From Microglena sp. YARC (Eukaryota > Chlorophyta > Chlorophyceae > Chlamydomonadales > Chlamydomonadaceae), in assembly GCA_022414725.1 (NCBI GenBank), contig CM039462.1:12689610-12753609 (forward strand): 64,000 bases of DNA, given 5' to 3'. The notes under the pieces were generated by a model. The model had not been told where the DNA came from. It searched no databases and worked only from the letters and a program-made list of their open reading frames with translations. The position numbers were made by a program, and so were the translations under genes. Positions 8,103 through 61,457 of this stretch are shown piece after piece; within the stretch, counting starts at the first letter, position 1; every line of letters begins with the position of its first letter.

Positions 8103-8268
8103 AATGGGCGTTCCTGCCTCCCGGCCGATTTTGACGAGTTGCGAAACATGGTATGGAGCGGATTTGTGATTCCTTGGTGCTGATGTCTCAAGCTAGCGAG
8201 TCGTTCAGGAGGCTCTAAATCCTGATTAGAAATTTAAAAAAATCGGCCGGGAGGCAGGAACGCCCATT
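8103..8268. mobile_element. 166-bp miniature inverted-repeat transposon, family B (AATGGGCGTTCC)
   Basis: Perfect 30-bp terminal inverted repeats beginning AATGGGCGTTCCTGCCTCC and ending in a T-run. The flanks on both sides read ATAT, a 4-bp target-site duplication. The ends match those of the 10.4-kb element at 33,852-44,253 at almost every base, and that element also has a 4-bp duplication, so this is a non-autonomous relative. It is inserted inside the TA-type element 7734-8329. Confidence 0.88.
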
Positions 8269-27679: not shown

Positions 27680-28084
27680 GAACAAACGCGATTGAGCGAG
27701 CGAGCAAGCACTTCCTGAGCGATGCGAGCGAGCACTTCCTGAGCAATGCAATTCGGCAATGCAATTCAAATTAGCGAACAGGCGATGCAACTCGTCGCGA
27801 AATCCTGGAAGCTATTTCAAAGACACCTCACCTTGGGCTTCCGAATTTCCAGGAATTGAGTGGTAACCAGCGAAAGATGTGGTGCATCCTCGCTGGACCG
27901 AGCATATGAACCTACCAAACCCTTATCATGTTTCAGCTGAAGATCGCGACGTTTGTGATGTCTATCCTGTGACACGTCACCTTTTACCGATGCGAGCGTT
28001 TGCTGTCAGCCAGCTCACGACACGAACCTCCGGGCATCGTGTGGTTTCGCATGTCCGGGCAGCTCGCGACACGAACCTCCGGGC
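27680..28084. repeat. GAGC-rich repeat and conserved flank with an unoccupied target site
   Basis: 27,690-27,770 repeats GAGCGAGCAAGCACTTCCTG. 27,850-27,990 matches 33,720-33,851 and then, without the 10.4-kb element, 44,254 onward: CTGTGACACGTCACC is continuous here. 28,010-28,080 repeats CGACACGAACCTCCGGGCA. No gene seen. Confidence 0.75.
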
Positions 28085-28402: not shown

Positions 28403-29230
28403 CAAGTGCTTGACATGACAGTAACATTACAATTAAGAACAACCTATGAATTTGACAAGGGCACAACTCTGTTTGAAGACACATCTCATTGCACCAGTCA
28501 TCCTACAAGTAGGGTTGACAATTGCCAATGAATTCGTCAATTCAAACATAAGTTTATGCCAAGGCATCATCCATTAATTGATTCAGTATGACCATACACA
28601 AGTGCTTGACATGACAGTAACATTACAATCAAGAACAACCTATGAATTTGACAAAGCACAACCCTGTTTGAAGACACATCTCACTGCACCAGTCATCCTA
28701 CAAGTAGGGCTGACAATTGCCAATGAATTCGTCAATTCAAACATAAGTTTATGCCAAGGCATCATCCATTAATTGATTCAGTATGACCATACACAAGTGC
28801 TTGACATGGCAGTAACATTACAATCAAGAACAACCTATGAATTTGACAAGGCACAACCCTGTTTGAAGACACATCTCACTGCACCAGTCATCCTACAAGT
28901 AGGGCTGACAATTGCCAATGAATTCGTCAATTCAAACATAAGTTTATGCCAAGGCATCATCCATTAATTGATTCAGTGTGACCATACACAAGTGCTTGAC
29001 ATGACAGTAACATTACAATCAAGAACAACCTATGAATTTGACAAGGCACAACCCTGTTTGAAGACACATCTCACTGCACCAGTCATCCTACAAGTAGGGC
29101 TGACAATTGCCAATGAATTCGTCAATTCAAACATAAGTTTATGCCAAGGCATCATCCATTAATTGATTCAGTATGACCATACACAAGTGCTTGATATGAC
29201 AGTAACATAACAATCAAGAACAACCTAATT
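28403..29230 (+). repeat. 195-bp satellite array 1, each unit a 64-codon frame
   Basis: Four full units and part of a fifth. Unit length is exactly 65 codons; each full unit runs from ATGATTCAGTATGACC-type start to TAA, encoding a 64-residue frame (MIQYDHTQVLDMTVTLQSRT at its start). Copies at 49,190-49,790 and inverted at 54,810-56,400. Units are nearly identical, implying recent amplification. Whether the frame is expressed is unknown. Confidence 0.9.
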
Positions 29231-29269: not shown

Positions 29270-29320
29270 AATTCTGAGTAGAAATTTCAAAAAATCCGCC
29301 GGGAGGCAGAAACGCCCATT
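29270..29320 (-). repeat. Solo family B transposon end
   Basis: AAATCCGCCGGGAGGCAGAA and ACGCCCATT match the family B end. The partner end was not found nearby. The same solo end is at 49,840-49,878. Confidence 0.65.
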
Positions 29321-33019: not shown

Positions 33020-33851
33020 AGTGCAGCAGCAGCATTTGAGTATCCTGTAATCTATATCCGACCAGCTCAACTCGATCTAGCATCCTGTAAGTTACGAACA
33101 TTGCGACAGTGCAGGCAGGCATTGCAGCAGCAGCATTTGACTATCCTGTAATTTATATCCGACCAGCTCAACTCGATCTAGCATCCTGTAAGTTATCGAA
33201 CATTGCGACAGTGCAGGCAGGCATTGCAGCAGCAGCATTTGACTATCCTGTAAGCTATATCCGACCAGCTCAACTCGATCTAGCATCCTATAAGCTATAG
33301 AACAATTGCGACAGTGCAGGCAGGCAGCGCAGAAGCAGCAGCAGCATTTGACTATCCTGTAAGCTAGGTCCGACCAGCTCAACTCGATCTAGCATCCTGT
33401 CAGTTATCGAACAGTCGCGACAGTGCAGGCAGGCATTGCAGCAGCAGCAACAGCAGCATCTAACAACTATCCTGTAAGCTAGATCCGACCAACTTCACCT
33501 GGTTGATTGAACAAACGCGATTGAGCGAGCGAGCAAGCAATTCCTGAGGAATGCGAGCAAGCAGTTCCTGAGCGATGCGAGCAAGCACTTCCTGAGCGAG
33601 CGAGCGAGCACTTCCTGAGCAATGCAATTCGGCAATGCAATTCAAATTAGCGAACAGGCGATGCAACTCGTCGCGAAATCATGGAAGCTATTTCAAAGAC
33701 ACCTCACCTTGGGCTTCCGAATTTCCAGGAATTGAGTGGTAACCCGCGAAAGATGTGGTGCATCCTCGCTGGACCGAGCATATGAACCTACCAAACCCTT
33801 ATCATGTTTCAGCTGAAACTCTCGACGTTTGACATGTCTATCCTGTGACAC
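33020..33851. repeat. About 110-bp repeat array 2, GAGC repeat and flank
   Basis: Four to five copies of the CGACAGTGCAGGCAGGCATT repeat, then GAGC-rich repeats (33,510-33,620), then the flank equivalent to 27,850-27,975. It ends at GACAC, where the 10.4-kb element begins. Confidence 0.85.
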
Positions 33852-33879
33852 AATGGGCGTTCCTGCTTCCGAACGGATT

Positions 33880-34175
33880 TCCAATCTTACAATCACTTTT
33901 TGGGGGTCTTTTGATGCTTTTCAAATGCAATCTTACGATAAAAAACGTAAGATTGTAGTCAATTTTGACAAAATATGCTTGAAATGAGCTTGAAAGACGG
34001 AGAAACGTACAGATTGCGAATGTTACAACGTTGAAATGCCATATTTTGTAACAAAAGGTGTTAACATCAATTCGTGTCTTACAATTATAATTGTAAGAAA
34101 TAAAGGGAAAGCGGACGGTTATAAGGCGGCAGGCAGAATTCAGCTTTTACATCTTACAATAAAAATCGTAAGTAT
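33880..34175. repeat. Left subterminal palindromes
   Basis: AATCTTACGATAAAAAACGT followed by AAGATTG, then CTTACAATTATAATTGTAAG, then ATCTTACAATAAAAATCGTA. Each has a 6-9 bp stem sharing TCTTAC/GTAAGA. Such subterminal repeats usually bind transposase. Confidence 0.7.
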
Positions 34176-34210
34176 AATTCATTTAATTTTTCTAATTTAG
34201 TAAAAAACGG

Positions 34211-36686
34211 CTATGTGTCAAACATCTTACTCCTCCTCCTCCCCCCCTCCTCGTCCTCCTCTTCCTCCTCCTTCTCCTCCTCCATGTCCCCATCCCCATC
34301 TTCCTCCTCCTCCATCTCCTCCTCCTCAGCAATGTCTGCATTGTCTCCTTCCGATTGCACAGCCTCTGCCCTGGTGTCCTTTTCAATGGATTGACAAGCT
34401 AGGAGCATGCTTGTGTGGTACTTTCTCTGGATCTTCATACCCTTGGTGGGTTCGCAGCTAAATTGAAATGCGTCAATGGGAATATCGCCGTCCATGTTGC
34501 TTTTCTCCTAACCCCCACGGTAATAGGCACAAGCTTGTGGTCTATCCAATCTTCTGGCCAAGTTGGGTATTGTGTTTCAGTGTACACCAACTTCTGAGCC
34601 CCAGAGTACAAGGGCTTTAAATACACACATTCCACTTCTCCATTCACTGGTAGTGATTTGACCTCCACCACGTCCCATCCTCTCAATCCGCTAGAGTCAT
34701 CCATTTGTACCTTGACAACAGCGACATGACCAACAACCAAATCAGTAGTGGGCTCGTAGGCTATTCTTCTATCCGGCTTCGTCCCTTGTGAAGAATATAA
34801 GTACAACACATCCTCCTCCTCTGGCCTTTCCATATTAGTCTCCAAAGTGTGTGCAACCTTCATAGTCTTGGCAATCTCGTTACTTGCAGGTAAAAGGTCT
34901 GACACATCCATGGACAAGTCATCCAATGCTGCTATCAAGCGCTTGGCCATTGATTTCTCAGACTGTGTCAGAACACGACTGGTTGCTGACAACTCCGATG
35001 GGAAGTCGACAAAATGTTGGTCTTTTGGGTACTCCCCAGACACAGCATCATCTGGTTGAGTGCTCCAATAACTCTTCTCAACTTTGAAGAAATCAGTCCA
35101 CCACTTATTGCTGGCTTCCCAAGTTTCACGAAGCATCCCGGCAATATGTTTGAAGGACTGGGCATGGGATGGGCCATCGGCTGCTGGTTCATCCATCGGC
35201 TGCTGGTCATTGGCTTCTGGTTCTAGAACCAGAAGGTCCTCCGCTGCGTGTTGTACACGGACATCAGCTACGGGTCCTGCACGGTCGTCACCGGCGGTTT
35301 GTACAGGACCATCGGCCATGTGGCCTGCAAGGACGTCACCTCCGGGCTTCTCGTTATGAATAGTCTTCCAGACAGCCGCCCAATTTGCCTCGATATTCTC
35401 GAGCTCTTCAATCTTGATCTTGGGGGCTTCCTTAAATACTGTTATGGTGTCCACCAGTGGGAAGCCTTGGAGGACGTAAATAGGTTCAGCGTCATTGTCC
35501 CACTGTCCTCTCCAAGATCCTGACTCGTCATACTCCTTGTAATCGACCCCTGCAATTGTTGGTGTGCAAACATGTATTGTATATTAGTGAATCATTTAGG
35601 ACACCCATATTCCTCCCGACTATACTCGGGAGCATCCCTTGGATAATACATCCTAGGTCCTAGGTACAACTTCCTTTGTATCATTTAGTTTCTATTGAAG
35701 ACTGTACATGTAAATCAATGAGGACATGGCACACCCATATTCCTCCCGAGCATAATCGGGAGCATTGTGCAGACAGTACATACACGCACGGTAGCATTTA
35801 ATTTGTAAATATCAGTATATCAAGTATTCTTACCGACTCTCCCGTTGGGACCTTTCGTTATCTTGAATGCGTGTAAACGGCGATTAACTCCTTTGACGGT
35901 GCTAGTGCCATGTCCGAACAACTTGTAAACGTTGTCTAGGAGGACAGCGGAGAAGTCCCCTATAGAGGTCACGACGTCTTGCCTTGTGTAAGGGCCCATT
36001 CTCTTGAATAAGTTACCAACAATGCCCATCAGATGGTCCAGGGTGTACACTTCCATGTTCTTTAACCCTTGCGAGATCACAGAGTACTTTTGGTCAAGAT
36101 TGCTATGTGTGTGTCCGGGAGGGAGGAAATGGACGTACACCTCCTCAAACCAGTTCATCTCAACCAGCAAGGACAAGTATGCGAACATGAAAGCGTTCTT
36201 GTTGTCCTTTGCCGCGTTGTCCATTTGCAAGAAGCAATACGGTGGAAGCTGCCCCTCTTCTTCAAGGACCCGGTTGAAGAAATGTTGGAAGCATGATATA
36301 GTCAGATTGATGGACTGCGAGTAGAATGGCAAAGCCCAATAACCAATGAAGCCTCTTCCCTGGGAGAATAATCCTGAGTTAACATAGAAGGAAACATGAA
36401 GTCAGAATATTAGCATTATTTTGTTTAAGTAATCATTTCAAGTTTTAAATACTGTGTATGCTCCCGATTATGATCGGGAGGACATGTCCTACGTGCGCTG
36501 TATTTGTACTCACACATGATGCGTTGTCTTTAGAAGATCACCTCCTGCAGTCTTCTTTGTATGTGAGAAGTGGCGTGACTGAGGAAGATTAGTCTTCTTG
36601 TTGTCCATTGCATCAGCGGATACGTGCAAGAAGAGCTTCGGATACTGTTCAGACAGTTTTTCACAGATGTCATACCTACGCCTTGA
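34211..36686 (-). pseudogene. Spliced transposase-like gene (resembles DUF7869 proteins)
   Basis: Three exons are readable on the minus strand. Exon A 36,686-36,516: KLFLHVSADAMDNKKTNLPQ and SRHFSHTKK. Exon B 36,359-35,834: FIGYWALPFYSQSINLTISC, then FLQMDNAAKDNKNAFMFAYL and VHFLPPGHTHSNLDQ, the pattern of the RNase-H-like family I remember as DUF7869. Exon C from 35,554: VDYKEYDESGSWRGQ onward to an acidic C-terminus. B-to-C borders (donor GTAAGA, acceptor TTGCAG) match in phase. Exon C has a shift near 34,510 at a G-run. Asp residues in DAMDN and QMDN are candidate catalytic acids. Upstream exons are not certain. Confidence 0.62.
35555..35833 (-). other. Intron containing hairpin repeats
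   Basis: The intron between exons C and B contains two monomers CTCCCGACTATACTCGGGAG and CTCCCGAGCATAATCGGGAG, the same hairpin that builds the large arrays at 36.9-42.3 kb. This links array and gene as one element. Confidence 0.6.
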
Positions 36687-36949
36687 CTGGTTTTAGGATT
36701 GCTTTCCCCCTACTTTTCTTCTCCACGGGAATATTTGTCTGGCTTACTCCTTATGACTTGTGTTGTGGAATCCCAGGAATTCTGGTACCAGAATACCAGG
36801 GATTGGGGGGAATGTTATGATACAGCCTATAGCTGTATGAGTAACGGTGCCGGGCTTAGGTCCGACACCCACTCTAGCAGCTGGTGACCAGGCATCTGCC
36901 TGGCAGCTAGCAGTGTAGTAGGTGACTTCAAGCGAATAGGGTCGTTGGG

Positions 36950-38285
36950 TTTGTCAATGCTCCCGATTATGATCGAGAGAATTGTGTGTATTCCGAGTTT
37001 GGTTTTCTCAATCATTCGCTCATTGGGTTTGACAATGCTCCCGATTATGATCGGGAGGACTGTGGGTATTCTGAGTTTGGTTTTTTCTCAATCATTCGCT
37101 CGTTGGGTTTGACAATGCTCCCGATTATGATCAAGAGGACTGTGGGTATTCTGAGTTTGGTTTTTCTCAATCATTCGTTCGTTGGGTTTGACAATGCTCC
37201 CGATTATGATAGGGAGGACTATGGGTATGCCGAGTACAAAAAAAAAAAAAAAAAAAAAATGCTGAGTACATGTTTTCAGAAACATTTGCTCGTTAGGTTT
37301 GTCAGTGCTCTCGATTATGATCGGGAGGACTGTGTGTATTCCGAATTTGGTTTTCTCAATCATTCGCTCGTTGGGTTTGACAATGCTCCCGATTATGATC
37401 GGGAGGACTCTGTGTATTCCGAATTTGGTTTTCTCAATCATTCGCTCGTTAGGTTTGTCAGTGCTCCCGATTATGATCAGGAGGACTGTGTGTATTCTGA
37501 ATTTGTTTTTTCTCAATCATTCGCTCGTTGGGTTTGACAATGCTCCCGATTATGATTGGGAAAACTATTGGTATGCCGAGTACAAAAAAAAAAAAAAAAA
37601 AATGCCGAGAATTTGGTTTTCTGAATCATTCGCTCGTTGGGTTTGTTAGTGCTCCCGATTATGATCGGGAGGACTGTGTGTATTCCGAATTTGGTTTTCT
37701 CAATCATTCGCTCGTTGGGTTTGACAATGCTCCCGATTATGATCGGGAGGACTCTGTGTATTCCAAATTTGGTTTTCTTAATCATTCGCTCGTTGGGTTT
37801 GTCACTGCTCCCGATTATGATCGGGAGGACTGTGTGTATTCCGAATTTGGTTTTCATAATCATTCGCTCGTTGGGTTTGACAATGCTCCCGATTATGATC
37901 GGGAGGACCGTGGGTATTCTGAGTTTGGCTTTTCTCAATCATTCGTTCGTTGGGTTTGACAATGCTCCCGATTATGATTGGGAGGACTATGGGTATGCCG
38001 AGTACAAAAAAAAAAAAAAAAAAAATTCGAGTACATGTTTTCTGAATCATTCGCTCGTTGGGTTTGTCAGTGCTCCCGATTATGATCGGGAGGACTGTGT
38101 GTATTCCGAATTTGGTTTTCTCAATCATTCGCTCGTTGGGTTTGTCAATGCTCCCGATTATGATCGGGAGGACTGTGTGTATTCCAAATTTGGTTTTCTC
38201 AATCATTTGCTCGTTGGGTTTGACAATGCTCCCGATTATGATCGGGAGGACTATGGGTATTCTGAGTTTGGTTTTTCTCTATATC
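36950..38285 (+). repeat. Hairpin satellite array, left arm
   Basis: About 16 monomers of roughly 78 bp, each with the perfect 8-bp hairpin CTCCCGATTATGATCGGGAG and a conserved spacer (TCAATCATTCGCTCGTTGGG). Poly-A tracts of 17-21 bases interrupt the array at about 37,240, 37,584 and 38,006. The strand here is opposite to the right arm. Confidence 0.92.
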
Positions 38286-39544
38286 TGAATCTGATTTTGA
38301 ATCTGAATCTGAATCTCAATCATTTGCTTTACCAACCTATTTGTCTTTCGCAGGGTCTACAATGACAGTACCGTGGAAGTAAAACTCCAATCGGATGGGA
38401 AGGATTTGGGATGCAGCGTCATGGACGAATGGACCAAGGAGCGCCAAGTGCCAATGAACATCGAAGTCGTTGTTGGTGGACCAGACTTCTATGTTACGGC
38501 TACGCACGCTCACTGGTTGAGGTTTTGCGGCGAATGCAGGCATATGTGCGGAGCAGATGCATTCTGGTCGACACTCACCCTTGCGGAAGTCAAGACAGCC
38601 CAGTTGCTTGAAGTCACTAGCATTCGGAGGCCCATGTTAGGAGCCCTATCATGGATACCAGTTCACATTCAGGCTCTTGGGTTGGTGGTTGACAATGCGC
38701 AGCAAGCCTGTCAGGGTCGGCGAGGGCGAATTTATCGCCGACAAAGAGCTTGAGGAAACTAGGGCGTGGGTTGAGACATGCGAAGGAAAGCTCATGAGCG
38801 ATTTCGAGGAGTTTGGTCCTAGCGACAGGAGGACGTCACCTCGATGTACACCAAAAGGGCCTTCACCTGACGCCGGTAAGAGAGCAATCGAACGGACTGT
38901 ACTGCTGCACCGTGGCTCAGGTTAAATTTTCAAATCTGACAGGTACATTTCGAATGTTACGTACGCGGTGGGATGTACACCGTTCGAAACAACCATTGTG
39001 TGCTGACCGCACTTGCCGCTTTCAATTTCGATAGGATATTGCGTAACTTCTGCACTCTTTACAATTCCTACAGCCTCCGCGAAGAAGTCAAGAAAGGCGC
39101 GACGAGGTCAGCTTCCTACAATCAACGAAGAGGACAGATCGCCGACAACTTTGTAAGGTCATCGTATTCAAATTGGTATCTCCTTATAGCCCAGCTCCTG
39201 ACATGGGCCTCCGAATGCTAGTGACTTCAAGCAACTGGGCTGTCTTGACTTCCGCTAGGGTGAGTGTCGACCAGAATGCTCCGCACATATGCCTGCATTC
39301 GCCGTGAAACCTCAACCAGTGAGCGTGCGTAGCCGTAACATAGAAGACTGGTCCACCAACAACGACTTCGATGTTCATTGGCACTTGGCGCTCCTTGGTC
39401 CATTCGTCCATGACGCCGCATCCCAAATCCTTCCCGTCCGATTGGAGTTTAACTTCCACTGTACTGTCATTGTAGACCCTGCGGAAGACAAATAGGTTGG
39501 TAAAGCAAATGATTGAGATTCAGATTCAGATTCAAAATCAGATT
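38286..39544. other. Spacer between the hairpin arms, with inverted exon copies
   Basis: 38,355-38,690 (plus) and 39,184-39,485 (minus) are inverted copies of one exon-like segment with acceptor TTTCGCAG or TTCCGCAG, encoding LQSDGKDLGCSVMDEWTKER and ATHAHWLRFCGECRHMCG. Between them, about 38,690-39,180, is single-copy sequence with coding-like pieces (YTVRNNHCVLTALAAFNFDR) that I do not recognise. The minus copy is in the same orientation as the transposase-like gene and could be an upstream exon. Confidence 0.6.
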
Positions 39545-42340
39545 CAGATATAGAGAAAAACCAAACTCAGAATACCCATAGTCCTCCCGATCATAATCGG
39601 GAGCATTGTCAAACCCAACGAGCAAATGATTGAGAAAACCAAATTCGGAATACACACAGTCCTCCCGATCATAATCGGGAGCATTGACAAACCCAACAAG
39701 CGAATGATTGAGAAAACAAAACTCGGAATACACACAGTCCTCCCGATCATAATCGGGAGCACTGACAAACCCATCGAGCGAATGATTCAGAAAACATGTG
39801 CTCGGCATACCCATAGTCCTCCCGATCATAATCGGGAGCATTGTCAAACCCAACGAGCGAATGATTGAGAAAACCTAATTCGGAATACACACAGTCCTCC
39901 GATCATAATCGGGAGCACTGACAAACCCAACGAGCGAATGATTCAGAAAACATGTACTCGGCATTTTTTTTTTTTTTTTTTTTTTTTGTACTCGGCATAC
40001 CAATAGTCCTCCCGATCATAATCGGGAGCATTGTCAAACCCAACGAGCGAATGATTGAGAAAAACCAAACTCAGAATACCCATAGACCTCCCGATCATAA
40101 TCGGGAGCATTGTCGAACAAACTAGCAAATGATTGAGAAAACCAAATTCGGAATACACAGAGTCCTCCCGATCATAATCGGGAGCATTGACAAACCCAAC
40201 GAGCGAATGATTGAGAAAACCAAATTCGGAATACACACAGTCCTCGATCATAATCGGGAGCACTGACAAACCCAACGAGCGAATAATTCAGAAAACATGT
40301 ATTCGGCATTTTTTTTTTTTTTTTTTTTTTACTCGGGCATACCCATAGTCCTCCCGATCATAATCGGGAGCATTGTCAGACCCAACGAACGAATGATTGA
40401 GAATAACCAAACTCAGAATACCCACAGTCCTCCCGATCATAATCGGGAGCATTGTCAAACCCAACGAGCGAATGATTCAGAAAACATGTAAACGGCATTT
40501 TTTTTTGTACACGGCATACCCATAGTCCTCCCGATCATAATTGGGAGCATTGTCAAACCCAACTAGCAAATGATTTCGAAAACCAAATTCGGAATATACA
40601 CAGTCCTCCCGATCATAATCGGGAGCACTGACAAACCCAACGAGCGAATGATTCAGAAAACATGTACTCGGCATTTTTTTTTTTTTTTTTTTTACTCGGC
40701 ATACCCATAGTCCTTCCTATCATAATCGGGAGCATTGTCAAACCTAACGAGCGAATGATTGAGAAAAACCAAACTCAGAATACCCACAGTCCTCCCGATC
40801 ATAATCGGGAACATTGACAAACCCAACAAGCGAATGATTGAGAAAACCAAATTCGGAATACACAGAGTCCTCCCGATCATAATCGGGAGCATTGACAAAC
40901 CCAACGAGCAAATGATTGAGAAAACCAAATTCGGAATACACACAGTCCTCGATCATAATCGGGAGCACTTACAAACCTAACGAGTGAATGATTCAGAAAA
41001 CATGTACTCGGCATTTTTTTTTTTTTTTTTTTTTTTGACTCGGCATACCCATAGTCCTCCCGATCATAATCGGGAGCATTGTCAAACTCAACGAACGAAT
41101 GATTGAGAAAAACCAAACTCAGAATACCCACAGTCCTCCCGATCAAAATCGGGAGCATTGACAAACCCAACGAGCGAATGATTGAGAAAACCAAATTCGG
41201 AATACACAGAGTCCTCCCGATCATAATTGGGAGCATTGTCAAGCCCAACGAGCGAATGATTGAGAAAACTAAATTCGGAATACACACAGTCCTCCCGATC
41301 ATAATCGGGAGCACTGACAAACCTAACGAGCGAATGATTCAGAAAACATGTACTCGACATTTTTTTTTTTTTTTTTTTTTTACTCGGCATACCCATAGTC
41401 CTTCCTATCATAATCGGGAGCATTGTCAAACTTAACGAGCGAATGATTGAGAAAAACCAAACTCAGAATACCCACAGTCCTCCCGATCATAATCGGGAAC
41501 ATTGACAAACCCAACAAGCGAATGATTGAGAAAACCAAATTCGGAATACACAGAGTCCTCCCGATCATAATCGGGAGCATTGACAAACCCAACGAGCAAA
41601 TGATTAAGAAAACCAAATTCGGAATACACACAGTCCTCGATCATAATCGGGAGCACTTACAAACCTAACGAGCGTATGATTCAGAAAACATGTACACGGC
41701 ATTTTTTTTTTTTTTTTTTTTGACTCGGCATACCCATAGTCCTCCCGATCATAATCGGGAGCATTGTCAAACCCAACGAACGAATGATTGAGAAAAACCA
41801 AACTCAGAATACCCACAGTCCTCCCGATCATAATCGGGAGCATTGACAAACCCAACGAGGAAATGATTGAGAAAACCAAATTCGGAATACACAGAGTCCT
41901 CCCGATCATAATTGGGAGCATTGTCAAACCCAACGAGCGAATGATTGAGAAAACCTAATTCGGAATACACACAGTCCTCCCGATCATAATCGGGAGCACT
42001 GACAAACCTAACGAGCGAATGATTCAGAAAACATGTACTCGGCTTTTTTTTTTTCCTTTTTTTTTTTGTACTCGGCATACCCATAATCCTCCCTATCATA
42101 ATCGGGAGCATTGTCAAACCCAACGAACGAATGATTGACAAAAATCAAACTCAGAATACCCACAGTCCTCTTGATCATAATCGGGAGCATTGTCAAACCC
42201 AACGAGCGAATGATTGAGAAAAACCAAACTCAGAAAACCCACAGTCCTCCCGATCATAATCGGGAGCATTGTCAAACCCAACGCGCGAATGATTGAGAAA
42301 ACCAAACTCGGAATACACACAGTCCTCCCGATCATAAAAA
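39545..42340 (-). repeat. Hairpin satellite array, right arm
   Basis: About 33 monomers in inverse orientation to the left arm, same hairpin. Poly-T tracts at about 39,965, 40,310, 40,497, 40,673, 41,013, 41,360, 41,701 and 42,044 are mostly 340-347 bases apart, so four monomers plus a homopolymer form a higher-order unit. Confidence 0.92.
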
Positions 42341-43600
42341 AATCAATCCTAAAACCTGTCAAAGAAAACTTGATCCACCGAATGCCTAGACGGAACAGGC
42401 AAAAGGGCTAAATTCTTCTGGGCTGTGACATTTCATCAGTCATGCTATGCAAGTCAAGCAGGCCTCAACTACACATCTTTGCTTTACCTATTGCAGTACT
42501 GGGCCACTAAAACAAACCTAGTAAATAGGTAGGTGGCCGAGGTGGGCAAGAACACAGTAAAATAGAAGAACTGCAGGTGTACATGATCCATATGTCAGTG
42601 TCATGTAAAGTACCAATCACAACATAAACACCCAACCACACTCCCGGCAAAGATTAACCAATAAACAAGGCAACCTGTTGGCAAGCAGTAACTTGGTCAA
42701 CACAGGCACAAGGCAGCTAAGTCTGGGCTACAATTGCAGTCTACCACTACAATGCAATTCATAACCAAACCAGACGCTATGGAAATCTTGGAACGGTAGC
42801 TAAGGATGCATGCCATATGGGTATGCAGTACTGTCCGCCATTACTCTGACGCAGGTGCAAGCGGGTAACCATCATGCAGGTAGGCAGGCCTCAGGAAGGT
42901 GCAGGCGGGTGCAGAGCTGTTCGCCAGTACTCCGGCGCAGGTGCTGGCCCGGCGCGTGTCCTGGTCTGGTCTGGCAGGTGCAGGCGGGTAACCGCCATGC
43001 AGGTAGGCAGACCTATCCAGTGCTCCGAGCGCCAGTGCTCCTGGCTATCTGCCCAGCATCCACCAGAGAAGGTGCTAGGCAGGACAGTGACAGTGAAATG
43101 CATTGCGCAAAGGGTGCGAGAATTAGAAGCAACTCGGGGGTTATTCACAACCACCCGGTGCTAATGCAGATGCGCAGCAAGGCGATGCAGAAAGCGAAAG
43201 GCAAAGCAGCAGATCATGAGAACAGAGCTGAAGTGAATTCCCATAGCAGTGAAATGCATTGCGCAAAAGGTGCGAGAATTAGGTGCAACTCGGGACCATG
43301 CAGGGCCATCCGGTGCTAATGCGGATGCGCAGCAAAGCAATGCAGGATGCGAAAGGCAATTTGCGCAAGGCATGAAAGGAGGTGAAAGCGCAAGGCATTA
43401 AAAGAGGTGAAAGCGCAAGGCATGAAGCAAAGCCTTACCGACTTATCAAAACAGTCTTTCATGCATGCGCAGCAAGGGGGGGCCCGGCAAGGGGGGTCAA
43501 TCAATGCACATCAAGGGGTCATGCAAAGGGGTCAAGCTGCCAGAGAAGGTGCTGGGCATGGCAATCAATGCACAGCAAGGAGTCATGCAAAGGGGTCAAG
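42341..43600. repeat. Degenerate repeats in the right part of the element
   Basis: GGTAACCATCATGCAGGTAG-type segments repeat at 42,866 and 42,989; CAGTGAAATGCATTGCGCAA repeats at 43,091 and 43,249; GTCATGCAAAGGGGTCAAGC repeats at 43,518 and 43,581. No complete gene. Confidence 0.55.
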
Positions 43601-43745
43601 CTGCCAATCCATTGAGAAGGACACCAAGGCAGAGGCTGTGCAATCGGATGGAGACAATGTAGACATTGCTAAGGAGGAGGAGATGGAGGAGGAGGAAGAT
43701 GGGGATGGGGGCATGGAGGAGGAGATTCTAGTGCAGCGATTGTAC
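43600..43745 (+). repeat. Inverted copy of the transposase-like gene's 3' end
   Basis: Encodes DTKAEAVQSDGDNVDIAKEE in plus orientation, matching DTRAEAVQSEGDNADIAEEE at 34,300-34,390 in minus orientation. It shows that both ends of the element carry the same terminal coding segment facing outward. Confidence 0.75.
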
Positions 43746-44029
43746 AGGCGCTGTTGTTACCCAACAAGTTAGCATTGGCCCTCTTTCTACAACGTGATAG
43801 CCTGTCATAAGTACTAAGTTGCACTTTCGAACTGTTGAGTTGTGAGTTGTGAGATAAATAATTATGAGCAATGCGTTCAAGACTTTGTAAACAGCTTTCA
43901 CCTTCCTCTTGACTGTCCTCTACAATTGATTTTGTATTGGAATACTTCGAAGGAACTTTCTCTCTCTCCAAACGAGCAAATCAATGTTACAATTGAAATT
44001 GAAGGGAATAGTCTCTTTCTCCGGAATGC

Positions 44030-44220
44030 AACAAAACAATCTTACATAATAAATTGTAAGATATTTTCGTAAAATACACCAAAAAAGCAAAATCAATCAA
44101 TTTGCGAAAACGATCTTACAAAATAAATTGTAAGATATTTTCGTAAAATACACCAAAAAAGCAAAACCAATTAATTTGCGAAAACGATCTTACAATATTT
44201 ATCGTAAGATTTCAGTAAAA
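44030..44220. repeat. Right subterminal palindromes
   Basis: ATCTTACATAATAAATTGTA, ATCTTACAAAATAAATTGTA and ATCTTACAATATTTATCGTA, each followed by AGAT, spaced about 70 bases. They mirror the three at the left end. Confidence 0.75.
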
Positions 44221-44253
44221 TAAAAAATCCGTTCGGAAGCAGGAACGCCCATT

Positions 44254-44891
44254 ACACGTCACCTTTCACCGATGCGAGCGTTTGCTGTCAGCCAGCTCGC
44301 GACACGAACCTCCGGGCATCGTGTGGTTTCGCATGTCCGGGTAGCTCGCGACACAATCCTCCGGCCAGCATGTGGTTTCGCATGTCCGGGCAGCTCGTGA
44401 CACGAACCTCCGGGCAGCTCGCGACACGAACCTCCGGGCATGCCCCATGCAACCCCATGGTACACACCGCATGCCCCATGCAACCCCATGCCCCATGCAA
44501 CCCCATGCATCATGCAACCCCATGGCACACACCGCATGCCCCATGAAACCCCATGGCACACACCGCATGCCCCATGCAACCCCATGCCCCATGCAACCCC
44601 ATGCATCATGCAACCCCATGCATCATGCAACCCCATGGCACACACCGCATGCCCCATGCAACCCCATGCATCATGCAACCCCATGCAACCCCATGCCCCA
44701 TGCAACCCCATGCATCATGCAACCCCATGCAACCCCATGCCCCATGCAACCCCATGCCTCATGCAACCCCATGGTAAACACAGCATGCCCCATGGTACAC
44801 ACAGCATGCCCCATGCAACCCCGTGGTACACACAACATGCCCCATGCAACCTAAAGACCTCAAATGCCGGGCTTCGCCCCTACACGAAACG
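44254..44891. repeat. Flank continuation and 31-bp satellite array 5
   Basis: ACACGTCACCTTTCACCGAT resumes the sequence seen uninterrupted at 27,970; CGACACGAACCTCCGGGCA repeats follow, then about 13 satellite units rich in the variant CATGCATCATGCAACCCC, then the CTCAAATGCCGGGCTTCGCC block. Confidence 0.88.
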
Positions 44892-49189: not shown

Positions 49190-49790
49190 CACAACCTATG
49201 AATTTGACAAGGGCACAACCCTGTTTGAAGACACATCTCACTGCACCAGTCATCCTACAAGTAGGGCTGACAATTGCCAATGAATTCGTCAATTCAAACA
49301 TAAGTTTATGCCAAGGCATCATCCATTAATTGATTCAGTGTGACCATACACAAGTGCTTGACATGACAGTAACATTACAATCAAGAACAACCTATGAATT
49401 TGACAAGGCACAACCCTGTTTGAAGACACATCTCACTGCACCAGTCATCCTACAAGTAGGGCTGACAATTGCCAATGAATTCGTCAATTCAAACATAAGT
49501 TTATGCCAAGGCATCATCCATTAATTGATTCAGTATGACCATACACAAGTGCTTGACATGACAGTAACATTACAATCAAGAACAACCTATGAATTTGACA
49601 AGGCACAACCCTGTTTGAAGACACATCTCACTGCACCAGTCATCCTACAAGTAGGGCTGACAATTGCCAATGAATTCGTCAATTCAAACATAAGTTTATG
49701 CCAAGGCATCATCCATTAATTGGATCAGTATGACCATACACAAGTGCTTGATATGACAGTAACATAACAATCAAGAACAACCTAATTTTT
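49190..49790 (+). repeat. 195-bp satellite array 2
   Basis: About three units, nearly identical to 28,403-29,230 and with the same 64-codon frame. Followed by the same T-run, CAGTCAGTCAAATAAATTCT, solo family B end and orphan exon, so the whole block 28.4-30.4 kb is duplicated here. Confidence 0.9.
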
Positions 49791-49884
49791 TTTTTATTGC
49801 AACGTCAGTAAGTCAGTCAGTCAAATAAATTCTGAGTAGAAATTTCAAAAAATCCGCCGGGAGGCAGAAACGCCCATTACTTAC

Positions 49885-54587: not shown

Positions 54588-57500
54588 GGATGACTGTGAA
54601 GTCCATCCTGAAGTCCTCACGAAGAGGAGAGTTGTTGATGTGCATAATGACCATCTCAATTCTCATGGGAGCAGCCTTCATTGAGGTTAACACCAAAGGA
54701 ATCCTGCACGCTACATTCAACCCAGAAGCTGATTTCTTCAAGCAACCCCTAGTGAGTTTGATTTTTGTGAAGTACTTTCCTTGTCAAATTCATAGGTTTC
54801 TCTTGATTGTAATGTTACTGTCATGTCAAGCACTTGTGTATGGTCATACTGAATCAATTAATGGATGATACCTTGGCATTTTGTAATGTTACTGTCATGT
54901 CAAGCACTTGTGTATGGTCATACTGAATCAATTAATGGATGCTACCTTGGCATTTTGTAATGTAACTGTCATGTCAAGCACTTGTGTATGGTCATACTGA
55001 ATCAATTAATGGATGATGCCTTGGCATAAACTTATGTTTGAATTGACGAATTCATCGGCAATTGTCAGCCCTACTTGTAGGATGACTGGTGCAGTGAGAT
55101 GTGTCTTCAAACAGGGTTGTGCCTTGTCAAATTCATAGGTTGTGCATTGTCAAATTCATAGGTTGTTCTTGATTGTAATGTTACTGTAATGTCAAGCACT
55201 TGTGTATGGTCATACTGAATCAATTAATGGATGATGCCTTGGCATAAACTTATGTATGAATTGACGAATTCATTGGCAATTGTCAGCCCTACTTGTAGGA
55301 TGATTGGTGCAGTGAGATGTGTCTTCAAACAGGGTTGTGCCTTGTCAAATTCATAGGTTGTTCTTGATTGTAATGTTACTGTCATGTCAAGCACTTGTGT
55401 ATGGTCATACTGATCCAATTAATGGATGATGCCTTGGCATAAACTTATGTTTGAATTGACGAATTTATTGGCAATTGTCAGCCCTACTTGTAGGATGACT
55501 GGTGCAGTGAGATGTGTCTTCAAACAGGGTTGTGCCTTGTCAAATTCATAGGTTGTTCTTGATTGTAATGTTACTGTCATGTCAAGCACTTGTGTATGGT
55601 CATACTGAATCAATTAATGGATGATGCCTTGGCATAAACTTATGTTTGGATTGACGAATTCATTGGCAATTGTCAGACCTACTTGTAGGATGACTGGTGC
55701 AGTGAGATGTGTCTTTAAACAGGGTTATGCCCTTGTCAAATTCATAGGTTGTTCTTGATTGTAATGTTACTGTCATATCAAGCACTTGTGTATGGTCACA
55801 CTGATCCAATTAATGGATGATGCCTTGGCATAAACTTATGTTTGAATTGACGAATTCATTGGCAATTGTCAGCCCTACTTGTAGGATGACTGGTGCAGTG
55901 AGATGTGTCTTCAAACAGGGTTGTGCCTTGTCAAAATCATAGGTTGTTCTTGATTGTAATGTTACTGTCATGTCAAGCACTTGTGTATGGTCATACTGAA
56001 TCAATTAATGGATGATGCCTTGGCATAAACTTATGTTTGAATTGACGAATTCATTGGCAATTGTCAGCCCTACTTGTAGGATGACTGGTGCAGTGAGATG
56101 TGTCTTCAAACAGGGTTGTGCCCTTGTCAAATTCATAGGTTGTTCTTGATTGTAATGTTACTGTCATGTCAAGCACTTGTGTATGGTCACACTGAATCAA
56201 TTAATGGATGATGCCTTGGCATAAACTTATGTTTGAATTGACGAATTCATTGGCAATTGTCAGCCCTACTTGTAGGATGACTGGTGCAGTGAGATGTGTC
56301 TTCAAACAGGGTTGTGCCTTGTCAAATTCATAGGTTGTTCTTGATTGTACTGTTACTGTCATGTCAAGCACTTGTATTGTCAAACTTAATTTACTCTCCT
56401 GGGGCACTATTGTCAAACTTAATTTACTTGGGGTACTATTGTCAAACTTAATTTACTCTCCTGGGGCACTATTGTCAAACTTAATTTACTCTCCTGGGGC
56501 ACTATTGTCAAACTTAATTTTCTCTCCTGGGGCACTATTGTCAAACTTAATTTACTCTCCTGGGGCACTATTGTCAAACTTAATTTACTCCCCTGGGGCA
56601 CTATTGTCAAACTTAATTTACTCTCCTGGGGCACTATTGTCAAACTTAATTTACTTGGGGCACTATTGTCAAACTTAATTTACTCTCCTGGGGCACTATT
56701 GTCAAACTTAATTTACTCTCCTGGGGCACTATTGTCCCGTGCCCTCTTCGTCTTATCTTATTTAATGTATCCTTTTTGTTGTAGACTGACATCCGAGACG
56801 CTCGCGTGAAGGCGTCCAATTCCGATTCAAGTGCAGGCTGTATGTATTGCAGAATTAAAACCGAAATTCTGACGTACGCCAATGAGAACCATCTTGTGTG
56901 CCCGTTATGTTGGGATATGAGAGTGTTGGGTCCTCAAATGACTATGTTTTTGGATAAGGACATCTCTACTGTAGCTAGGAAGGTGTTGGAGTTAGTTTCT
57001 GATGCGTCAATTACGATTGATATGCACAGATACACTCCCACTATTGTCTCCACATCGTGGGAGATATTACCCACAGAATCCGAGCTGTTCAGAATCATTC
57101 AGGGCTCCTTCGATTCTGAAGAGAAGTTTAACATGCTTTCCGAGAAAATAAGAAATAATATCCCTCATGTCACTAAATTGAATGTCAAAAATACTGAGTA
57201 TTTCATTTCACGTGTATACTTCCAAACCACATTGGATTTATTGCACAACAATGAGCTAGATAGTATAGCGAAGGCTCTATTTATGGACGCTGCTACAGTA
57301 AATATCCGCCCTGACCAGAACATACGTATGAAAACGATGTTGTTTCTGTCAACGCAAGGAGGAGATGGAACTGGTTTACATTGGGATATTACCCGGGGAC
57401 TTAATGTTGCTTTCTCATTGACCCCTGGTGTGACTGGTCCATTAGCATTTTGGCTTTTTATCCCCCCTTGGGGATTTGAAGAATTTATTGCTTTTGTGCA

Positions 57501-60575: not shown

Positions 60576-61457
60576 CTAAAGCATCTGGAAGACGAGGGAC
60601 ATGGAGCGAAGCTCAATTGCAAGCTCGTCGAGCGTAGCTCGCTTGGTGGCGAGGTACGCCTCACGCTGTGAGGGAGTCTGTTTCATGCACGCGAGGTGCG
60701 CGCACGTGCCCAGGGTGAAGGGGGGGTCACCAGGGGTGCAAATGGTAACCTGACGGCGGCTGCAAGGGTTGCCTTTAGTGGTGACAGCAGTGCAGCCCAG
60801 GGTGGGGGAATACCCCACTATGGTAAATGCACCTATATTGGCACCAACCTGCAGCTCGTTCTTCAGCGGGGCCCCGCGTCCAACCCGACTGGAGGCCAAG
60901 GAGGAGGAGGGGGAGCCCGTGGAGAACGCGCCAGCAGACGTGGCGGTACCACTAAAGAGGGCAGGAGCAGGAACAGTAGTAGAATCAGTAGAATCAGTAG
61001 AAGCAGTAGCAGCCGGAGCCCCAGAGGGTGACACCGTGGCGCGGGGGCGCTTACCGCTACCGCCGGACCCAGTGCCAACGTCCTCGGTGATTTCGTCATC
61101 CTCTGGGAGGGCGACAGCAATGGCATCGATTAAGTATAAGCAGCAGGGTGAAGTAGAAGCAGCAGCATCTTGGGCAGCCGCAGTAGCGACTGCAACTGGT
61201 AGCAACATGGCCTGGAGAGGCCCCTTCTCCCCTTTCGGGGAATCTTGGATAAACTTTCTGTGCGCAATCTTCATTGTGCCGACAGAGTCGGCGAGGCACT
61301 TAGGCACGCTGGTCAAGGAAATGATAACGTTGCAAATGCCCTTCAAATGAGGGACGGTGACGTTTTGGGATATCTTCTTTCGGTCCTTCTTCTGGACGAC
61401 GTCGAAGATATTTGTTGTATCGACGAACGCATTGATCTGGGCAGACATGGTAGACAT
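60576..61457 (-). CDS. Ser/Thr/Ala-rich protein with C-terminal Cys/His motif
   Basis: 293 residues from ATG 61,457 (a second ATG is three codons on). N-terminal 80 residues look globular (INAFVDTTNIFDVVQKKDRK; GICNVIISLTSVPKCLADSV); the middle is low-complexity; the C-terminus CTAVTTKGNPCSRR followed by CTPG and CAHLAC resembles small zinc-binding motifs of viral proteins. TTTATAAG lies about 45 bases upstream, a possible TATA box. A proline/serine linker suggests a two-domain DNA-associated protein; function unknown. Intact. Confidence 0.6.
   Translation of the reverse strand: MSTMSAQINAFVDTTNIFDVVQKKDRKKISQNVTVPHLKGICNVIISLTSVPKCLADSVGTMKIAHRKFIQDSPKGEKGPLQAMLLPVAVATAAAQDAAASTSPCCLYLIDAIAVALPEDDEITEDVGTGSGGSGKRPRATVSPSGAPAATASTDSTDSTTVPAPALFSGTATSAGAFSTGSPSSSLASSRVGRGAPLKNELQVGANIGAFTIVGYSPTLGCTAVTTKGNPCSRRQVTICTPGDPPFTLGTCAHLACMKQTPSQREAYLATKRATLDELAIELRSMSLVFQML

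What the first reader, a model, noticed from the sequence alone, without database searches (positions are those of the whole stretch)
33852..44253. 10.4-kb element with 29-bp inverted ends, 4-bp duplication and its own empty site in the same window
The ends are perfect inverted repeats. CTGTGACAC|...|ACACGTCACC at the borders compares with uninterrupted CTGTGACACGTCACC at 27,965-27,980 in a paralogous copy of the flank, so insertion with ACAC duplication is shown directly. It carries a spliced transposase-like gene, subterminal palindromes and a large inverted satellite. I do not recognise this combination as a described superfamily.
Basis: partly seen in the sequence, partly recalled or inferred. 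Interest (0 to 1): 0.85.

Follow-up and report, generated by a model that had tools for sequence, protein, structure and literature searches.

The report
Satellite-bearing DUF7869 DNA transposon family
A 10.4-kb jumping gene of the cut-and-paste type, one of many near-identical copies in a large eukaryotic genome, carries a broken copy of an uncharacterised protein (DUF7869) that looks like the enzyme that moves it; it may belong to the already named Sola group.

Summary
33852-44253 is a DNA transposon with 29-bp perfect inverted ends, an ACAC duplication and its own empty site (27967-27981). In the host genome the 40 scored left ends and 40 scored right ends are identical over 100 bp. Of 17 large copies with both ends recovered, 14 have an exact 4-bp duplication, 2 match at 3 of 4 bases, 1 has none; a related MITE gives 21 of 21. 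The gene encodes Pfam DUF7869, of unknown function. Predicted models resemble DDE/D transposases and integrases, though Foldseek E-values are weak; three Asp are invariant; selection is purifying between two families. The window copy lacks its N-terminal part and is frameshifted, so it probably moved in trans. The satellite is internal and varies between copies. 'No described superfamily' is not established: published Sola features (DDD transposase, 4-bp duplication, variable ends) fit, but homology to Sola could not be tested. New here: DUF7869 is most probably a transposase.

The parts
33848..33851 (.). target site duplication ACAC, left copy
   Evidence: sequence; empty site at 27967-27981
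33852..33880 (+). left terminal inverted repeat, 29 bp
   Evidence: 40 of 40 scored genomic copies of the first 100 bp are identical
33931..34172 (.). left subterminal palindromes of the form TCTTAC-N-GTAAGA (two exact, one imperfect), proposed transposase binding sites
   Evidence: in the window the exact form occurs only near the ends of this element
34222..35549 (-). transposase gene, C-terminal exon, with a change of frame near its 3' end relative to relative P0001
35834..36373 (-). transposase gene, exon with second and third catalytic Asp (DUF7869)
   Evidence: Pfam PF25273 E=9.6e-36; exon start set by eye from L099/L155; frame open and free of gaps in 9 of 19 aligned copies, window included, tested over 36359-35834
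36514..36690 (-). transposase gene, 5'-most surviving exon piece with the first catalytic Asp (borders approximate); the upstream N-terminal part is missing
   Evidence: L099 keeps the upstream part
36942..38280 (+). internal satellite, about 78-bp unit with palindrome CTCCCGATTATGATCGGGAG, first arm
38350..39193 (+). second gene-like segment (passenger, function unknown), no Pfam match over cut-off
39194..39515 (-). partial inverted copy of the passenger segment
   Evidence: inverted match 38028-38644 / 39194-39804 at 96.4%
39557..42337 (-). internal satellite, second arm, opposite orientation
43599..43694 (+). inverted copy of the transposase gene 3' end near the right end
   Evidence: tblastn with P0001 residues 351-382, 87.5%
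44040..44210 (.). three right subterminal palindromes TCTTAC-N-GTAAGA
44225..44253 (-). right terminal inverted repeat, 29 bp
   Evidence: 40 of 40 scored copies identical over the last 100 bp
44254..44257 (.). target site duplication ACAC, right copy
27967..27981 (.). empty site CTGTGACACGTCACC in the paralogous flank
8103..8268 (+). 166-bp MITE with related 30-bp inverted ends and ATAT duplication
   Evidence: ends match the second DUF7869 family at 27-28 of 29 bases
29291..29320 (-). solo MITE-type end, no partner found in the window
49849..49878 (-). solo MITE-type end in the paralogous block, no partner found in the window

Best explanation
The element is a cut-and-paste DNA transposon. 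Its transposase is the DUF7869 protein: an RNase H-fold DDD recombinase that recognises the AATGGGCGTTCCTGC... ends and probably the subterminal TCTTAC/GTAAGA palindromes, excises the element, and joins it to target DNA with cuts 4 bp apart, giving the 4-bp duplication. Shown: ends, duplication, empty site, many near-identical copies, the DDD motif, integrase-like predicted fold, purifying selection. Inferred: that this protein does the cutting, that the palindromes are binding sites, that the family moved recently, and that the window copy (truncated, frameshifted) moved in trans with enzyme from copies that keep the N-terminal part, as L099 does. The satellite is cargo that expands and shrinks between copies and seems not needed for movement, since a 3.96-kb copy with 12 units and a 166-bp MITE of a sister family also have 4-bp duplications.
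Confidence: 0.85

Rival explanations
1. Classification rival: the element is a member of the described Sola superfamily, and DUF7869 is simply the Pfam name of one Sola transposase branch. The mechanism would be the same.
For: Published Sola features fit: DDD transposase, 4-bp duplication, variable TIRs, sizes up to over 15 kb (PMC10741241, passages). Sola2-type elements of two amoebozoa have AT-rich duplications such as AWWT (PMC3627910, passages); 6 of 21 MITE duplications here read AWWT.
Against: No sequence comparison was possible. 15 of 21 MITE duplications are not AWWT. The word DUF7869 is in no paper of the library, which neither supports nor excludes this.
Confidence: 0.5
2. DUF7869 is a passenger gene, and an unrelated transposase acting in trans moves the element.
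For: The window gene is broken; copies such as L106 have duplications though almost all of the gene is gone.
Against: Integrase-like predicted fold, invariant DDD, purifying selection, and the same ends beside the gene in a second family about 80% identical in the core. Among the five element frames scanned no other transposase domain was found; the other frames of the element were not scanned.
Confidence: 0.08
3. The copies spread by segmental duplication or as a satellite rather than by transposition.
For: The flanks of the window are duplicated blocks, and some MITE copies share flanks (window and L136; L143, L144 and L146).
Against: Different flanks, fixed boundaries and target duplications at 14 of 17 large copies and 18 distinct MITE sites; an empty site in the same window.
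Confidence: 0.02

Closest known systems
Sola superfamily (eukaryotic DNA transposons)
   Same: DDD transposase, 4-bp target duplication, TIRs of variable length, element size in the reported range (PMC10741241, passages).
   Different: Homology of DUF7869 to Sola transposases not tested; duplications here are not consistently AWWT as reported for Sola2-type elements of Dictyostelium fasciculatum (PMC3627910, passages).
Ginger1 and Ginger2/TDD
   Same: 4-bp duplications (5 bp in TDD-4 and TDD-5), integrase-like catalytic fold, TIRs.
   Different: Ends here start AATGGG, not TGTNR; target sites are not CCGG/CCGT; the gene matches DUF7869 in Pfam and no integrase family (PMC2836005, passages).
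Kolobok and piggyBac
   Same: 4-bp duplication, DDD/E transposase.
   Different: No duplication reads TTAA in 21 MITEs or in the 17 large pairs; the paper itself reports that the KolobokP lineage has 3-5 bp, so TTAA is not universal. The C/DxxH signature given for Kolobok (PMC9587614, passages) is absent in 22 of 22 sequences.
IS481EU
   Same: Some families make 4-bp duplications; DDD/E transposase (PMC10045372, passages).
   Different: TGT...ACA ends reported for its Histomonas families and about 15-25 bp duplications in others; ends here are AATGGG...CCCATT and the duplication is 4 bp.
DUF7869 proteins of echinoderms, amphioxus and bivalves
   Same: Same Pfam domain and, where aligned, the DDD motif.
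   Different: None is named a transposase in the listing; their termini were not examined here.

Membership tests
cut-and-paste DDE/D DNA transposon | terminal inverted repeats with fixed ends in many copies | tested here: met
   40 of 40 scored left and 40 of 40 scored right ends identical
cut-and-paste DDE/D DNA transposon | target site duplication of fixed length | tested here: met
   14 of 17 large copies exact, 2 at 3 of 4 bases, 1 none; 21 of 21 MITEs
cut-and-paste DDE/D DNA transposon | RNase H-fold transposase with acidic triad | tested here: met
   predicted models and invariant DDD; prediction only, Foldseek E-values weak
cut-and-paste DDE/D DNA transposon | excision and reintegration observed | not testable with these tools
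   needs an assay
Sola | DDD transposase | tested here: met
Sola | 4-bp target site duplication | tested here: met
Sola | transposase homologous to Sola1, Sola2 or Sola3 | not testable with these tools
   no Sola sequences at hand; the founding paper is not held
Sola2 subgroup | AT-rich AWWT duplication as reported for D. fasciculatum elements | tested here: not met
   6 of 21 MITE duplications read AWWT
Ginger1/Ginger2 | TGTNR termini | tested here: not met
   ends start AATGGG
piggyBac and standard Kolobok | TTAA duplication | tested here: not met
   none of 21 MITEs or 17 large pairs
hAT, P, MuDR, Kolobok, Dada | C/DxxH motif between second D and last acidic residue | tested here: not met
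   0 of 22 sequences

The most novel reading that the evidence does not exclude
DUF7869 defines an undescribed, widespread superfamily of eukaryotic DDD transposases (41 residues between second and third Asp, GHTH before the last) with 4-bp duplications, whose elements repeatedly amplify internal palindromic satellites and seed MITEs.
Probability: 0.35. Interest if true: 0.65.

Novelty: new variant of a known kind. Interest (0 to 1): 0.5.

Why it matters
It gives a likely function, transposase, to a Pfam family of unknown function that occurs in animal and other eukaryotic proteins, none named as a transposase in my listings. It offers a family with many copies whose ends are identical, defined target duplications, an empty site and a truncated-versus-longer pair, which makes the activity of DUF7869 directly testable. 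It also shows a transposon carrying a satellite array whose unit number differs between near-identical copies.

Tried and rejected
A 15-base end pattern in viral contigs gave 85 stretches with one match each among the 80 listed, which I take as chance given the size of the collection, and left unused. DUF7869 was looked for in prokaryote genomes (12 pattern matches, none confirmed), viral contigs (36, none confirmed), phage records (none) and the PDB by sequence (none). NCBIfam gave only one match above E 0.1. Papers: DUF7869 in 0 papers (with transpos also 0); GHTH with transpos gave 11 papers, unrelated by title; Sola searches and the passages I saw gave no sequence motif; the Sola founding paper and the Yuan and Wessler paper are not held. 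The host could not be named: 'biopygen' is in no paper, although the EukProt proteins with that label look near-identical to loci of this genome (P0003 against L154, by eye).

Passenger segment: coding was tested by comparison of the window with L099. Differences by codon position were 21/18/18 in the first frame and 16/21/6 in the second, so coding constraint is not shown for the first and only hinted at for the second. Pfam gave nothing over cut-off. Foldseek's own tables had no match at E <= 0.001; many top rows were RNase H-like (Argonaute, terminase nuclease, Mos1), but some were not, for the second model the top two being carboxylases. No fold family other than DDE/D recombinases appeared among the 50 rows shown of each VIA-align list, which does not exclude others. 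A genome search for the satellite palindrome did not complete, so whether it occurs outside this family is unknown.

Rows left out: of 20 loci fetched from left ends, 15 were tried for a right end: 12 recovered; L096 and L099 not found in the pieces fetched, and L110's end lies just outside its piece; L095, L097, L098, L102 and L113 were not tried. With the window and four further copies this makes 17 pairs of 20 tried. The alignment behind the DDD counts holds 27 of the 41 proteins found; the other 14 (P0001, P0002, P0004-P0006, P0008-P0012, P0014, P0015, P0017, P0019) were left out as partial or near-duplicate models.
Full report
OBSERVATION. The ends at 33852 and 44253 are 29 of 29 bases inverted, flanked by ACAC, and the paralogous flank has the empty site at 27967-27981. 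Left and right flank matches to the paralogous stretch overlap by exactly 4 bp (27972-27975). The window also holds a 166-bp element (8103-8268) with related ends and an ATAT duplication, and two solo ends of the same type at 29320 and 49878.

GENOME-WIDE. The host assembly is 568 Mb in 2390 contigs and the window is C1:12689610-12753609. The first 100 bp of the element gave 497 candidates, of which the best 40 were scored, all 100% identical; the last 100 bp gave 486 candidates, 40 scored, all 100% identical, plus 40 partial matches to the repeated subterminal unit. These are lower bounds for copy number. Twenty stretches were fetched, starting at left ends. The left 1.7 kb of the window element, or the part of it present, matches at 97.1-99.7% in 20 of 20. 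Other blocks vary more, for example 89.5-100% for the second tail block in direct orientation, and L099 differs most, at 85-87% in the passenger block. Complete copies of 7784, 7987 and 3962 bp were seen.

TARGET DUPLICATION. Seventeen pairs of ends were recovered from 20 tried. Fourteen have an exact 4-bp duplication (window, L094, L100, L101, L103, L104, L105, L106, L107, L108, L109, L111, C1:51420773, C1:126087847; in L111 the last bases of the element are altered, and in L109 the site lies in a short repeat). Two match at 3 of 4 bases (L112, C1:50982979); one (C1:73566263, 6668 bp) has none and may be a recombinant or a wrong pairing. The MITE gave 2080 candidates, 40 scored; the best match of each is at least 98%. 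Twenty were fetched, and with the window copy 21 of 21 have an exact 4-bp duplication. By their flanks, compared by eye, these are 18 distinct sites. First base A in 13 of 21, last base T in 14 of 21, next base G in 15 of 21. L140 and L141 appear to be inserted 4 bp apart in paralogous copies of one sequence, in opposite orientation (by eye).

GENE. The minus-strand gene has exon pieces at about 36690-36514, 36373-35834 and 35549-34222; splice sites are inferred. The middle one matches DUF7869 (PF25273) at E=9.6e-36. The C-terminal exon is 92.6% identical to P0001 over residues 1-336 and then changes frame. Of 18 fetched copies with a match to P0016, 17 begin at its residue 114-142 and one, L099, at residue 1; L102 and L106 have no match (L099 frame). 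The window begins at 120. The middle exon is open and free of gaps in 9 of 19 aligned copies, window included. So the window element belongs to a truncated, presumably non-autonomous majority of the copies looked at. None of the fetched copies was shown to be fully intact.

SECOND FAMILY. A PF25273 search of the genome gave 518 candidates; 150 of 150 scored exceed the cut-off, and 0 of 14 control genomes ring. Three loci with long open frames (L154-L156) carry a related gene next to an AATGGGCGTTCCTGC-type end with 0-1 mismatch in 15 bases, 3 of 3; the open frame stops about 400, 380 and 840 bp from it (in L156 the frame ends early). The MITE ends match these at 27-28 of 29 bases. Far ends with up to 2 mismatches in 15 were not found in 10, 20 and 20 kb (L154, L155, L156). 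Between this family (L155) and the window or L099, dN/dS is 0.17 (175 codons, core, window), 0.21 (196 codons, N-terminal part, L099) and 0.39 (324 codons, C-terminal part, window): the protein is under purifying selection.

SATELLITE AND PASSENGER. The palindrome CTCCCGATTATGATCGGGAG (3 mismatches allowed) occurs 44 times in the element and nowhere else in the window. Similar palindromes lie in its introns (by eye). Other copies have 0 to 49 units, many of those copies being cut by the fetch; the complete ones have 27, 27 and 12. The array and a gene-like passenger are partly inverted in many copies; no inverted passenger match was seen in L099. I take the satellite to be internal cargo.

DISTRIBUTION AND PRINT. 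DUF7869 proteins were found in sources labelled eukprot, ena, jgi, lgn and ncbi, among them sea cucumbers, amphioxus, oyster and mussel, none named a transposase in the listings. No paper in the library holds the word DUF7869.

CLASSIFICATION. The published description of Sola fits the features that could be tested; the AWWT site reported for Sola2-type elements does not hold here. I therefore say: works like a Sola-type DDD transposon; membership open. Superfamily names and motifs not cited to a call are recalled.

Noticed in passing
window 29291-29320 and 49849-49878: Solo MITE-type ends beside copies of a duplicated 195-bp-repeat block; no partner end found in the window.
   Followed up: partly
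window 60639-61439 (-): Matches the C-terminal part of EukProt models P0002 and P0008 at about 54%; those models may fuse two repeat-borne genes.
   Followed up: no
window 28403-29227, 49191-49784, 55138-56375: 195-bp tandem repeat in three arrays, two orientations by eye.
   Followed up: no
L097:6232: A second copy of the element is inserted in the passenger segment of another copy.
   Followed up: partly
G000:C1:50974282-50982979 (L116, L117): A copy lies inside an N-terminal exon like that of L099 (by eye), with an imperfect duplication.
   Followed up: partly
L154:1863-3821 and L156:2032-2640: The second family also lies next to repetitive DNA of a different sequence, seen as repeated peptide in open frames.
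   Followed up: no
L156:9102-9926: Open frame that looks like a copia-type retrotransposon piece (recalled motif).
   Followed up: no
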